From Pontixanthobacter sp. CEM42 (GTDB lineage: Bacteria; Pseudomonadota; Alphaproteobacteria; Sphingomonadales; Sphingomonadaceae), in contig NZ_JADQTN010000002.1 in the NCBI RefSeq assembly GCF_017812015.1, forward strand, positions 620,001-684,000: DNA of 64,000 nt, in the 5' to 3' direction. The notes under the pieces are model-generated. The model saw nothing but the letters and a program-made list of their open reading frames with translations, ran no database searches and was not told where the DNA came from. The position numbers and the translations under genes are program-made. Below are positions 6,799 through 53,585 of this stretch, in pieces. How positions within the stretch are numbered: position 1 is the first letter of the stretch; each line of letters begins with the position of its first letter.

Positions 6799-7001
6799 TG
6801 CCAAAGAAAAAGCGCAAAGAGACTCCAGCGGAGCAAAGCAAAAGGTTCAAAGAAGAAGCCGAAAAGCTGATCGAGGATGGCGAACTAAACCCCACCGAGG
6901 CCGATAAGGCGCTTGATGCCATGGTAGCCTCTCAACGGACTAAAGCTTGCCATCAAGGGGCACAAACAGGGCGTTCGAGCGATCTGCAGAAAGTCCGGTA
7001 G
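6798..7001 (+). CDS. Small basic/helical protein downstream of transposase
   Basis: A 67-residue ORF whose ATG overlaps the transposase stop by one base (TAATG), so it is probably translationally coupled. It starts MPKKKRKETPAEQSKRFKEE and continues as a charged helix (AEKLIEDGELNPTEADKALD). Similar short ORFs with a SxRFxxxA pattern follow the transposase in other alphaproteobacterial IS1595 elements, as far as I recall; their function is unknown. The last 20 codons overlap the 3' end of the convergent DUF3800 gene by 62 bases, so the C terminus may not be original. Confidence 0.55.
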   Translation: MPKKKRKETPAEQSKRFKEEAEKLIEDGELNPTEADKALDAMVASQRTKACHQGAQTGRSSDLQKVR

Positions 7002-7776
7002 CTGACTCGTTCTTGAAATACCTGTTATGTCTGTGCGGGATATACTTGATCATGGTTTCTAGCGCGTACCCTTCATTTTCAATTTCTGGATGGCCTTCGC
7101 GGTCCCACTTCTCACCTTCTCGTCGACCGTGAAAGGCTAGGAAGTCTGCTAATTGGATTGCTCGACAGCTATGTTTGTCAACAAATTGAAGGGAGCCTAA
7201 GGGGCGCGGCAACGGTTCCCAATTCTGCTTTATCCAATTCCAATATTTCAAGATGTTCCCGTTATTCGAGTTCCCAAGCTCTACTAGAACCGAGAGCCTA
7301 ATGTCATTTGGCATGAGCGAAACCGCATCCTTATACATTAAGCTAGCAAGGCAATTTCCAAAGGCCGTGCCAAGTGGACTGAGGAATTTTTGAGCAGGGC
7401 GGGTCTTCCTGTTTTCAGCAAGCCAAGACTTTTGCACCACCGAATTAACGCCGCCAATAACGCATTCGCCAGCAATGCCATAAAGCCCATCGACAAAGTC
7501 ACGCTTTTTGTGGCCATCCCACCCTTTGTAGCAGCCTTTCTCGTGGTGAAAGTCCTTGCCGCGAATAACATCCACTCCAAAGGACTGCAGGAACGGTTCA
7601 ACCGCTCTCTCGAAGTCGACCCATTTATCCACGAATGATACGTAACCCGCCACACCCATAACTGGGCCTTGGTCATTGTCACTGTCGTCTAAATAGCAAA
7701 CCAGCACAAGTACCATCCCCGAACGTTCGTTTCGTCCGAGGTCAAATAGTCGAAAACAATCCTCGGCAGCTTTCAT
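6940..7776 (-). CDS. DUF3800 protein, cargo of the IS1595-type element
   Basis: The protein is 278 residues. The ATG at 7776 has a strong GGAGGTG ribosome-binding site five bases away, so it was preferred to the internal Met21. The core opens with LVCYLDDSDND, followed by VMGVAGYVSFVDKWVDFERA, the pattern of DUF3800, a domain with an RNase H-like fold predicted by others; acidic residues in YLDDS and in RAIQLADFLAFHGRRE near the C terminus would fit the metal site. DUF3800 genes are often found on mobile elements and near defence genes, with no settled function. It lies between the two element ends in the opposite orientation to the transposase, which marks it as cargo. Confidence 0.78.
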   Translation of the reverse strand: MKAAEDCFRLFDLGRNERSGMVLVLVCYLDDSDNDQGPVMGVAGYVSFVDKWVDFERAVEPFLQSFGVDVIRGKDFHHEKGCYKGWDGHKKRDFVDGLYGIAGECVIGGVNSVVQKSWLAENRKTRPAQKFLSPLGTAFGNCLASLMYKDAVSLMPNDIRLSVLVELGNSNNGNILKYWNWIKQNWEPLPRPLGSLQFVDKHSCRAIQLADFLAFHGRREGEKWDREGHPEIENEGYALETMIKYIPHRHNRYFKNESATGLSADRSNALFVPLDGKL

Positions 7777-7821: not shown

Positions 7822-7857
7822 TAAATTGTTTGTTTGACCTCAAGCGTCGGAGGGTTT

Positions 7858-8107
7858 GCTTGTTTTCCGCAAGCGCATCCGCGCTCGCGTCCTCGGCGCT
7901 GATCCTTCCGCTTCGCTTCAGGGCGCCTGTGGACGGCCGGTCGGCCTTGCGGTCAGCTAGTCGCTGACCGGATCAGCGCTAACCATCTATCTGGCAACTT
8001 TTCTTGGTCGCGGCAGCCATAGGGCCACGCGGCCCGCCCGCAGCGAAGCGACCGTCAGGGAGCGAAAGCGAGGAAATCGCGCGCCGGATGGCGTGCGGAA
8101 AACAAAA
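7858..8107. repeat. Dispersed structured repeat, copy A
   Basis: This fills the 333-base gap between the insertion element and the YqaA-like gene and encodes no protein I can support. Its ends are imperfect inverted repeats (7858-7884 and 8079-8107, sharing TTGTTTTCCGCA and GC-rich CATCCG). Inside is an 8-bp hairpin, 7950-7957 with 7963-7970, loop TAGTC, enclosed by a second pairing of about 11 bp (7895-7905 with 7970-7980). A related sequence lies at 36790-36987: both share the hairpin and loop, CTTGGyCGCGGyAGCCA and the block GGGAGCGAAAGCGAGG. It may be a non-autonomous transposable element or a structured RNA. Confidence 0.7.
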
Positions 8108-35323: not shown

Positions 35324-36058
35324 TCAAGCTCGCCGGGACGAAGGGACGAAATCCAGCAGATTGCGATACGCGTTGCCAACCGGCAAACGCTTGCCATTTG
35401 TGAGCAGCACTCCCTGCCGGTCCAGTCGTGCAACTGATTTGCGCCGGACCACGTAAGATCTGTGTATCTGACAAAGCGCACTGGCGTCGCTTTCTAGCAA
35501 TGCAGCAAGCGTCGATCTAACAAGTACGGGCGGACCGTTAGAGCGGTGCAGTTCCACATAATTGCCTGCGGCACGGGCCCAATCGAAATCCTGCAGGTGC
35601 CCATCACTTGTAGTGCTCTTTGTTCGGTTCTCGCGAGTTCTTAGGGCCAGTATGCCAAGGACCGTAGCTGAAACTGCCAATCCGGGTAGCCGACGCACGA
35701 TCTCAAAGTCCAAATCGGTGCGGTATTCCCCGTAAATTGGTAACTCGATGGCGAGCGAGACGATCATGGCTACGGTCAGTGCGCAGCAGACTGTCCTCAG
35801 CTTGTGGAAGTGGCGCGCAGTTTCGACAGCCGCGATCCACGGCACGATGTTGATGACACCCCACGCAACCGCGTTGAAAAGAGTTTCCGGATTGCCGGCG
35901 AAGTAATTGTAGAGCAGACAATAGACCGCATTTAAGGCAACTGCAGCGAAGCATAGGGCCGTCAGCCTTAGCGTTATCGGATAGTTTTGATATGCTGCGA
36001 GCACCGACCTTCTCCAACCAAACCGTCGTTCTATTTCCGCTGATACCGGAAATACCAC
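35324..36058 (-). CDS. LytTR-domain regulator with N-terminal membrane domain
   Basis: The protein is about 244 residues; the GTG start at 36058 overlaps the 3' end of trmB by 28 bases, and no other good start is seen. The N-terminal half has about four transmembrane segments (LTALCFAAVALNAVYCLLYNYF, AVAWGVINIVPWIAAV, LTVAMIVSLAIELP, LAVSATVLGILAL). Residues 165-240 form a LytTR DNA-binding domain (AAGNYVELHRSNGPPVLVRST, CQIHRSYVVRRKSV, RLPVGNAYRNLL). Such membrane LytTR regulators lack a receiver domain and act directly from the membrane. Confidence 0.82.
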   Translation of the reverse strand: MVFPVSAEIERRFGWRRSVLAAYQNYPITLRLTALCFAAVALNAVYCLLYNYFAGNPETLFNAVAWGVINIVPWIAAVETARHFHKLRTVCCALTVAMIVSLAIELPIYGEYRTDLDFEIVRRLPGLAVSATVLGILALRTRENRTKSTTSDGHLQDFDWARAAGNYVELHRSNGPPVLVRSTLAALLESDASALCQIHRSYVVRRKSVARLDRQGVLLTNGKRLPVGNAYRNLLDFVPSSRRA

Positions 36059-36732
36059 ACTTCATGTCCGAACACTTCGCGCGCCTTTTTCTCGTAGCGG
36101 GTTTGGCTCCAGCCGCCGGGGCGGTTTTGCCAGTCTGACGGGCTTTCAGCGAGCCATTCGAACTCGTCTGTGTGGCGGCGCATTACCATCAGAGCGTGAC
36201 GCAGATAGATATCATGATCGGTGCCGAAACGAAATTCGCCGCCAGGTTTGAGTTTCGCTGCGATCATTTGCACCGGACCGTCATTCATCATCCGCCGCTT
36301 GGCATGACGGGCTTTGGGCCATGGGTCAGGATGCAGCAAATAGACGAAGCTAAGCGCACCATCTGGAATGCGCGCCAATACTTGCAGCGCGTCCCCGTGG
36401 TGGAGGCGGATATTGGGTAAGCCGCGCTCTTTCGTATGGGTGAGCGCGCCTGCGACACCATTCAAAAACGGCTCGGCCCCGATAAATCCGTGATCGGGCA
36501 GCATATCGGCGCGGTCGGCCATATGTTCGCCAGAACCGAAGCCGATTTCAAAATGCATCGGCCGGTCGTCGCCGAACAAGCCTTGCGACGTGACGTCGCC
36601 TTCCAATGGTACAGCAATCTTAGTCAGGAAATTCTCGACCAGATCTTGTTGGCTCGCGCGCAGGGGTTTGCCTTGGCTACGGCCGTACAAGCGGTTGAGT
36701 GTCGTTGGATCGCCGGGCTTGTGAGCAGTCAT
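36031..36732 (-). CDS. trmB: tRNA (guanine-N7-)-methyltransferase
   Basis: The protein is 233 residues from ATG 36732. It has the TrmB pattern MHFEIGFGSGEHM (SAM motif), FIGAEPFLNGV, the LLHPDPWPKARHAKRRM block (PDPWPK-H-RR) and GGEFRFGTDHD. It methylates G46 of tRNAs. The reading frame extends upstream without an ATG having a ribosome-binding site. It is divergent in layout from its usual metK neighbour, which lies 12 kb away here. Confidence 0.92.
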   Translation of the reverse strand: MTAHKPGDPTTLNRLYGRSQGKPLRASQQDLVENFLTKIAVPLEGDVTSQGLFGDDRPMHFEIGFGSGEHMADRADMLPDHGFIGAEPFLNGVAGALTHTKERGLPNIRLHHGDALQVLARIPDGALSFVYLLHPDPWPKARHAKRRMMNDGPVQMIAAKLKPGGEFRFGTDHDIYLRHALMVMRRHTDEFEWLAESPSDWQNRPGGWSQTRYEKKAREVFGHEVWYFRYQRK

Positions 36733-36789
36733 GGTGGAGCGTTTAGGCGGCTTTGTGTATGGTCTCAAGCAGCGGGGGTCTGTTTGTTT

Positions 36790-36987
36790 AGACCCTCAGT
36801 CGCCGGGCGGAATGCATCCGCATTCCTTGGCTACCTCGCATAAGCTCGGGCGCGCAGTCGCGCTTGCGGTTCACTGGTCGTGAACCGAACCGTTCCAAGC
36901 CATCGATATTCGTTTTGAATCTTGGCCGCGGTAGCCACAGGGAGCGAAAGCGAGGATATCGCGCGCCGGATGGCGTACGGAAAACAA
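36790..36987. repeat. Dispersed structured repeat, copy B
   Basis: This fills most of the 330-base gap between trmB and ctrA; no coding region is supported in it. It shares with copy A (7858-8107) an 8-bp hairpin (36867-36874 with 36880-36887, loop TGGTC), CTTGGCCGCGGTAGCCA, GGGAGCGAAAGCGAGG and a right end GGATGGCGTACGGAAAACAA. The hairpin stems differ between the copies at three paired positions, each still pairing. A local GGAATGCATCCGCATTCC palindrome lies at the left side. About 40 bases after copy B comes the ctrA terminator. Confidence 0.7.
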
Positions 36988-37062: not shown

Positions 37063-37758
37063 TTAGGCAGCTTCTGCGGCTGCTTCTGGATCGCGCAGGA
37101 CGTAACCACGGCCCCACACCGTTTCGATGTAGTTTTCGCCATCACATGCGTGGCTGAGCTTTTTGCGCAGCTTGCAAATGAAGACATCGATAATCTTGAG
37201 TTCGGGCTCATCCATGCCGCCATAAAGGTGGTTGAGGAACATTTCCTTGGTGAGCGTTGTGCCTTTGCGGAGCGAAAGCAGCTCCAGCATGGCGTATTCT
37301 TTGCCGGTCAGGTGAACACGGGCGCTGTCGACTTCAACAGTCTTCGCATCGAGGTTCACGGCCAGTTTGCCGGTGCGGATGATCGATTGGCTGTGGCCTT
37401 TCGAACGGCGCACAACGGCATGAATGCGGGCAACCAGCTCTTCGCGGTGGAAAGGCTTGGTTACATAATCGTCAGCGCCGAAGCCGAAGCTGCGGATCTT
37501 GCTGTCCATTTCGGCAATGCCGGAAAGGATGAGAACGGGTGTTTGTACCTTGGCGACGCGCAGCTTCTTGAGCACGTCATAGCCGTGCATGTCTGGCAGG
37601 TTCAGGTCGAGCAGGATGATATCGTAATCATACAGCTTGCCCAGATCGAGCCCTTCTTCGCCCAGATCGGTCGCGTAGACATTAAAGCCTTCGGTGGTTA
37701 GCATTAACTCGATAGCTTTGGCCGTTGTTGGCTCGTCTTCGATCAACAGTACACGCAT
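37063..37758 (-). CDS. ctrA: Cell-cycle response regulator CtrA
   Basis: The protein is 231 residues. The receiver domain has the acidic pair in LLIEDEPTT, phosphoacceptor Asp in [15 protein letters not shown] and Lys in [11 protein letters not shown]; the C-terminal winged helix has [19 protein letters not shown] and [12 protein letters not shown], identical in character to CtrA. The C-terminal AEAA tail fits the degradation-signal (AA) ending typical of CtrA. It controls cell-cycle, motility and GTA genes in Alphaproteobacteria; a GTA remnant lies in this same window. Confidence 0.95.
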
Positions 37759-53327: not shown

Positions 53328-53446
53328 GCGTATTTGGCAAGATTGTTGCGCTTTGTGCAACAAACAATGATCTTTTCGCACTTGCACAATAAACGGTTGT
53401 GACGCATTTAGACGGTGCCTTTTAGGCATCCTCTCCCAAACTTTTT

Positions 53447-53477
53447 AGGCCCGGTCGGTAACGACTGGGCCTTTTTT
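53447..53477 (+). terminator. Rho-independent terminator
   Basis: Stem 53447-53457 with 53462-53472 (AGGCCCGGTCG/CGACTGGGCCT, one G-T pair, loop GTAA), then T6 at 53472-53477. It is 120 bases downstream of the methyltransferase stop, so it ends either that transcript or a short RNA starting in between. Confidence 0.88.
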
Positions 53478-53585
53478 CTTGTGCGCCCGCAAGGCCCTGA
53501 TTGGTCTTTCGCATTTGCATCCTGCGCGCCCTCTTCCTAGCTAGAGCCGAACGAAGTTGATTCTGACCTAAGGAACAGGTGCTTG

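What the first reader, a model, noticed from the sequence alone, without database searches (positions are those of the whole stretch)
7858..8107. Dispersed structured repeat with a covarying hairpin (copy A)
Seen: a 250-base non-coding unit with imperfect inverted ends (sharing TTGTTTTCCGCA), an inner 8-bp hairpin with a five-base loop, and an enclosing ~11-bp pairing. Copy B at 36790-36987 keeps the same 8-bp stem and T-R-G-T-C loop, but three stem positions differ and each change is compensated on the other side. Compensatory change means selection for pairing, not just shared ancestry. No known repeat family that I can name fits. It could be a MITE-like element mobilised in trans or a structured RNA.
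Basis: partly seen in the sequence, partly recalled or inferred. Interest (0 to 1): 0.62.

Follow-up and report, generated by a model that had tools for sequence, protein, structure and literature searches.

The report
Dispersed mosaic palindromes with drifting hairpins
The window holds two members of a previously unnamed family of small, hairpin-rich DNA repeats scattered between genes in Erythrobacteraceae bacteria; their hairpin stems change sequence in matched pairs, but the pattern looks like a DNA copying or correction process rather than selection on an RNA.

Summary
The genome (Pontixanthobacter-like, Erythrobacteraceae) has at least 33 such loci. The family occurs in all 8 sampled genomes of the genus and in 66 of 150 sampled genomes of the family, but not in Rfam. 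A typical element is ~235 bp: imperfect inverted ends, and arms carrying three hairpins with conserved loops (ATCC; GGTC/AGTC; often TRGTC) and hypervariable stems. Copies A and B are mosaics of these modules with leftover ends of an earlier occupant.

Covariation is massive: 123 distinct arms, 96.3% of cells paired against 69% shuffled. The inference "so selection for pairing" does not follow. G·T pairs (22) are no commoner than A·C (24), two thirds of compensated changes between near neighbours are transversion-type, and real tRNA stems show 16 G·T and no A·C. That fits DNA-level palindrome copying (template switching, module exchange) better than RNA selection.

At orthologous sites the elements are present, absent, shortened or rebuilt. 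They abut stop codons (18 gene 3' ends within 10 bp, 6.8 expected). No Y1/RAYT transposase was found in this genome, nor in 16 of 18 element-bearing genomes searched; target duplications were not resolved. Best filing: a new variant of bacterial MITE/REP-like dispersed palindromes; mobiliser unknown.

The parts
7830..7850 (+). Leftover terminal piece of an earlier element (TTGTTTGACCTCAAGCGTCGG) abutting copy A
   Evidence: pattern search (C2:627830-627852, 3 mismatches to the end consensus); position
7855..8107 (+). Copy A, mosaic palindromic element
   Evidence: 43 matches of this query in the own genome at E<=1
7860..7871 (+). Left inverted end TTGTTTTCCGCA
7872..7885 (+). Hairpin H1, stem AGCGC / loop ATCC / GCGCT
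   Evidence: loop ATCC conserved across the family
7895..7905 (+). 5' half of the enclosing ~11-bp pairing (partner 7970-7979)
7935..7946 (+). Hairpin H2, GGCC-GGTC-GGCC
   Evidence: alternates with GCGC/GGGC stems in other copies
7950..7970 (+).
8003..8019 (+). Conserved linker CTTGGTCGCGGCAGCCA
8022..8035 (+). Hairpin GGGCC-ACGC-GGCCC of the right arm
8056..8105 (+). Right-arm block shared with copy B (96% over 50 bp)
8082..8093 (+). H1-type hairpin of the right arm, CGCC-GGAT-GGCG (ATCC loop on the other strand)
8094..8105 (+). Right inverted end TGCGGAAAACAA
36758..36778 (+). Leftover terminal piece preceding copy B (shared at this locus with G004 and G007)
36781..36987 (+). Copy B, mosaic element between the ctrA-like response-regulator gene (37063-37758, -) and the methyltransferase gene (36031-36732, -)
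36809..36826 (+). Copy B hairpin H1 GGAATGC-ATCC-GCATTCC
36852..36863 (+). Copy B hairpin H2 GCGC-AGTC-GCGC
36867..36887 (+). Copy B hairpin H3 CGGTTCAC-TGGTC-GTGAACCG
36921..36937 (+). Copy B conserved linker CTTGGCCGCGGTAGCCA

Best explanation
A and B belong to a family of short non-coding dispersed palindromic elements (MITE/REP-like) of Erythrobacteraceae. SHOWN: dispersal; mosaic anatomy; presence, absence or rebuilding at orthologous sites; location directly after stop codons. INFERRED: elements arrive by insertion into T-rich or hairpin-bearing sites behind genes, including the middle of older elements, whose ends are left as terminal pieces; the mobilising enzyme is unknown and is not a resident Y1/RAYT. 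INFERRED: the paired changes arise mainly at DNA level. A mutation in one stem arm is copied to the other by template switching on the hairpin (quasi-palindrome correction), and whole hairpins or arms are exchanged between copies. Loops, which cannot be corrected in this way, stay conserved because they are recognised or because copies are homogenised. Any effect on the host would be REP-like: a stable hairpin just after a stop codon, affecting translation or mRNA decay of the upstream gene.
For: At least 33 loci in the own genome. 66 of 150 family genomes by covariance model. Covariation: A2 98% paired, 61 double changes, no one-sided wobble change; A3 96.3% paired against 69.2% shuffled. Non-wobble spectrum: WC 2109, G-T 22, A-C 24, other 58; tRNA control G-T 16, others 0. 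Near neighbours: 112 WC-to-WC double changes against 37 one-sided (7 G-T, 12 A-C, 18 other); 72 transversion-type against 40 transition-type; 26 of 27 distinct H1 stems lie one base pair from another stem. In-situ case: at C2:87757 own and G004 share the arm, and 2 of 6 differences in 110 nt are one compensated H1 pair. Copy B locus: no element in G001 or G002, a ~73-bp mini-palindrome in G004, a different mosaic in G007. C2:74424 element absent in G004, which carries an unrelated palindrome there. Stop codons: 18 gene 3' ends within 10 bp, 6.8 expected, 0 of 20000 simulations. Template switching is a published source of compensatory change (PMC8794818).
Against: No target-site duplication and no autonomous partner with the same ends were found, so transposition is not proven. 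Template switching and module exchange were not separated. Some loci are more conserved than their flanks (C1:153869: 97.8% over 226 nt against 84-86% in flanks), which could mean function or gene conversion. Wobble counts include decayed copies, which alone give a symmetric spectrum. The tRNA control is small (21 tRNAs). Gene calls used for the stop-codon test are from a home-made codon-score caller and island edges are approximate.
Confidence: 0.6

Rival explanations
1. A structured RNA family (sRNA or 3'-UTR element) whose hairpins are kept by selection on the transcript.
For: Strong covariation and conserved loops; location right after stop codons, hence probably in transcripts; one ortholog much more conserved than its flanks.
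Against: G-T is not favoured over A-C (22 vs 24) and is rarer than in tRNA stems (1.0% vs 6.3%); most changes are transversion-type; mosaic arms and rebuilding at one site; no fixed gene partner; no Rfam match at gathering in the window and none of weight in six loci.
Confidence: 0.17
2. Elements moved as folded single-stranded DNA by an unrecognised hairpin-reading enzyme; conserved loops are recognition marks and stems may drift as long as they stay palindromic.
For: Conserved loops with free stems; insertion next to hairpins, terminators and inside older copies; presence/absence between species.
Against: No Y1 transposase in the own genome and in only 2 of 18 element-bearing genomes; no bounded transposase gene seen among the end-motif hits; a single-strand reader should favour G-T on one strand, which is not seen.
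Confidence: 0.15
3. Ordinary MITEs cut from an IS with the same inverted ends; covariation is only shuffling of pre-existing hairpin modules between copies.
For: Inverted ends, size, copy number, intergenic location; module exchange seen at orthologous sites.
Against: No IS with these ends seen in the own genome at up to 3 mismatches; no target duplication; many single-copy perfect stems (13 of 27 H1, 14 of 24 H3) need a source other than shuffling.
Confidence: 0.08

Closest known systems
REP / BIME / REPIN elements with RAYT (TnpA-REP)
   Same: Dispersed extragenic palindromes, often within ~15 nt of a stop codon (PMC12306157), clusters
   Different: ~235 bp with two arms of several hairpins each; no RAYT in this genome or in 16 of 18 element-bearing genomes; RAYT foot tetranucleotides not tested
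CIR (Caulobacter CcrM-associated intergenic repeats) of alphaproteobacteria
   Same: Alphaproteobacterial, intergenic, two hairpin arms joined by a linker (PMC2229807)
   Different: ~110 bp and GANTC at a hairpin loop; here the loops are ATCC, GGTC/AGTC, TRGTC, and GANTC appears only near some termini (9 of 59, 2.1 expected). No CIR sequence was compared here
Bacterial MITEs (Correia/NEMIS, ERIC, RUP, RPE)
   Same: 100-250 bp, inverted ends, intergenic, strongly folding (PMC2229807, PMC10969869)
   Different: Mosaic of exchangeable arms with hypervariable stems; target duplications and parent IS not found
Quasi-palindrome template-switch correction (a mechanism, not a family)
   Same: Makes and keeps perfect stems with simultaneous two-sided changes (PMC8794818)
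   Different: Described there for RNA genes; here proposed for a dispersed DNA repeat family, not demonstrated

Membership tests
MITE | Terminal inverted repeats, small size, many dispersed copies, non-coding | tested here: met
MITE | Target-site duplication | tested here: inconclusive
   Orthologous sites too diverged or rebuilt
MITE | Ends shared with an autonomous IS/transposase | tested here: inconclusive
   Own-genome end-motif hits fall in the element islands; the one wide facing pair inspected (G016) spans a ctrA-like gene; intervening genes were not all annotated
MITE | Presence/absence at orthologous sites | tested here: met
REP/REPIN with RAYT | Cognate Y1_Tnp (PF01797) transposase in the genome | tested here: not met
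   Absent in own genome; 2 of 18 element-bearing genomes have one
REP/REPIN with RAYT | Short (20-40 nt) palindrome with a conserved foot tetranucleotide | not tested
   Element is ~235 bp; a foot motif was not searched for
REP (functional analogy) | Palindrome within ~15 nt after a stop codon | tested here: met
   18 gene 3' ends within 10 bp, 6.8 expected; 16 of 26 elements with a 3' neighbour. An effect on translation was not testable
CIR | GANTC at the hairpin loop | tested here: not met
   Loops are ATCC, GGTC/AGTC, TRGTC
Known structured RNA (Rfam) | Match to an Rfam model at its gathering score | tested here: not met
RNA under selection for pairing | G-U tolerated over A-C on the transcribed strand | tested here: not met
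   22 vs 24; tRNA control 16 vs 0
Intrinsic terminator | GC hairpin followed by T-run | tested here: not met
   The T-run lies 5' and the A-run 3' of the palindrome on either strand (read from the sequences)

The most novel reading that the evidence does not exclude
A hairpin-reading, non-RAYT mobilisation system drives these elements, and palindrome correction lets stems drift while loops stay fixed: a DNA family that imitates RNA covariation and would fool covariation-based RNA discovery.
Probability: 0.2. Interest if true: 0.75.

Novelty: new variant of a known kind. Interest (0 to 1): 0.5.

Why it matters
Paired changes in stems are widely taken as proof of a functional RNA. Here is a large natural set (123 distinct arms from many species) where pairing is nearly perfect and variable, yet the wobble signature of RNA selection is missing. 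If the DNA-level reading holds, it gives a direct, strand-symmetric test (G-T against A-C) for telling DNA palindrome maintenance from RNA selection, and it describes a common but unnamed repeat family that rebuilds the regions just behind genes in Erythrobacteraceae.

Tried and rejected
Known RNA: only suhB elsewhere in the window; a weak sub-threshold ar14 match at one locus. RAYT/Y1 transposase: absent. Autonomous parent: G016 has three elements in 4 kb, but between them lie host genes that read like a ctrA-type response regulator, RpoN and an ABC ATPase, not a transposon (by eye). Short palindromic minis as source: the one pattern tried found only 2 in nine genomes. Plasmids and phages: copy A none in plasmids; a typical element gave short hits on seven Sphingobium replicons and none in phages. 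The genome contigs pattern scan used too short a motif and returned many unrelated chance hits; only the Erythrobacteraceae hits fit. Intrinsic terminator and integron attC: considered, rejected from the order of the T and A runs and the reversed core orientation (by eye). Literature: no paper on these repeats found in the library held.

Full report
1. What was checked. The anatomy reported for copy A and copy B is in the sequence at the stated places, and the 28-bp right-arm pattern common to both has no chance expectation in the window. The three compensated stem differences between A (CGGTCAGC-TAGTC-GCTGACCG) and B (CGGTTCAC-TGGTC-GTGAACCG) are real.

2. It is a family. The window is part of a 3.08-Mb genome (two contigs). 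One relative in the same genus has the contig lengths of Pontixanthobacter aquaemixtae, so the genus is most likely Pontixanthobacter, family Erythrobacteraceae. Copy A as query gives 43 matches in the own genome at E<=1; a typical 233-bp element (L017) gives 36; a search for the end motif TTGTTTRGCCTCAAGCGCCGGCG gives 29 sites and none for the reversed control. Merged, these make 33 separate loci, a lower bound. All 8 genomes of the genus held here have matches, and a covariance model of one arm finds it in 66 of 150 genomes of the family, in 49 of 96 genera (at most 28 candidates per genome were scored, so counts saturate).

3. Anatomy. A full element is ~235 bp. Ends are imperfect inverted repeats, roughly (GAGTY)TTTTGTTTRG-NCCTCARNCGCCGG; GAGT lies within 22 nt outside 17 of 59 termini where 2 are expected. 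Each arm carries hairpins: H1 with loop ATCC, H2 with loop GGTC or AGTC, H3 often with loop TRGTC, joined by conserved linkers (CCTCGCATAAGCTCGG; CTTGGTCRCGGCAGYCA). Several end types combine freely, so elements are mosaics; A and B share only H3 and the last 50 bp. Terminal pieces of 20-35 bp are often stacked outside the real ends (A, B and others).

4. Covariation. In 18 arms of the own genome 98% of cells pair and 61 cells have changes on both sides, with no one-sided wobble change. In 128 arms (123 distinct) from many species 96.3% of 2213 cells pair, against 69.2% in shuffles and at most 43.4% when the partner is slid; 525 cells are doubly changed. The alignment was fitted to the structure, which favours pairing, but a covariance model also tolerates G-U better than A-C, so that bias works against the next point.

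5. Why this is not good evidence for RNA selection. If a transcript were selected, G-U should be tolerated and A-C not. Observed: WC 2109, G-T 22, A-C 24, other 58. In tRNA acceptor and T stems from the same loci, counted by fixed position, there were 236 WC, 16 G-T and no other. Among 60 near-neighbour pairs, 112 pair changes were WC to WC and 37 one-sided (7 G-T, 12 A-C, 18 other); 72 of the 112 are of a kind that cannot pass through G-T. Nearly all distinct stems lie one base pair from another stem, as expected if a single mutation is copied to the partner strand. Template switching in replication is a published mechanism for exactly such changes (PMC8794818). Exchange of whole hairpins between copies is the other DNA-level source; the two were not separated here. 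Decay of dead copies also gives symmetric mismatches, so the test is strong against present-day RNA selection and weaker against selection only in active master copies.

6. Behaviour at orthologous sites. The locus of copy B (between ctrA-like and methyltransferase genes) has no element in G001 and G002, a mini-palindrome of ~73 bp in G004, and a different mosaic in G007, with the same old terminal piece outside in own, G004 and G007. At C2:74424 an element is present in own, G007 and G006 but absent in G004, which has an unrelated CCCGC palindrome there. At C2:87757 own and G004 share one arm, with a compensated H1 change among six differences in 110 nt, but have different centres. Other shared loci show inner parts replaced and outer ends kept. 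One shared element, C1:153869, is 97.8% identical over 226 nt while its flanks are 84-86% identical: constraint, conversion or transfer could explain this.

7. Position. With a codon-score gene caller, 18 gene 3' ends lie within 10 bp of an element against 6.8 expected by random placement in the same gaps (0 of 20000 simulations), while 5' ends are not enriched. Several elements sit in the T-run of a terminator hairpin (C2:243257, C2:607561, C1:207002). E. coli REPs within 15 nt of stop codons lower translation (PMC12306157); a similar effect here is inference. A itself lies between two gene 5' ends, and B between a gene 3' end and a gene 5' end, so neither window copy is one of the stop-codon cases.

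8. Mobiliser. Y1_Tnp is absent from the own genome and from 16 of 18 element-bearing genomes. The end motif did not reveal a pair bounding a transposase gene. No target duplication could be read. Movement is therefore inferred from dispersal and presence/absence only.

9. Verdict. A real, widespread, unnamed family of mosaic palindromic elements, closest to MITEs and REPs, with an uncommonly clean case of Watson-Crick-only covariation. New variant of a known kind.

Noticed in passing
window 53410-53486 (+): Rfam suhB/mmgR sRNA match, 51.9 bits.
   Followed up: no
window 6940-7776 (-): DUF3800 gene next to copy A; no DNA match to it in the other 7 genomes of the genus at E<=1e-6, so it is probably an accessory gene brought in beside the element.
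   Followed up: partly
L234 (G018 contig C24, 1-320): Three tandem copies, period ~100 bp, of a single element arm at a contig edge next to a tRNA-Leu gene: an arm can behave as a unit of its own.
   Followed up: no
own genome C1:153869-154093: Element 97.8% identical to its G004 ortholog while flanking sequence is 84-86% identical.
   Followed up: partly
L341, G004 ortholog of own C2:74424: A different palindrome (CGTCATTCCCGCGCAAGCGGGAA...) occupies the space right after the stop codon where own carries the element.
   Followed up: no
59 termini in the own genome: GAGT (17 vs 2 expected) and GANTC, the CcrM methylation site (9 vs 2.1 expected), are enriched just outside the ends.
   Followed up: partly
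Sphingobium replicons NZ_CP020539.1 and others: A 43-nt piece of the arm (linker plus H2) at 93% identity on seven ~1-Mb replicons.
   Followed up: no
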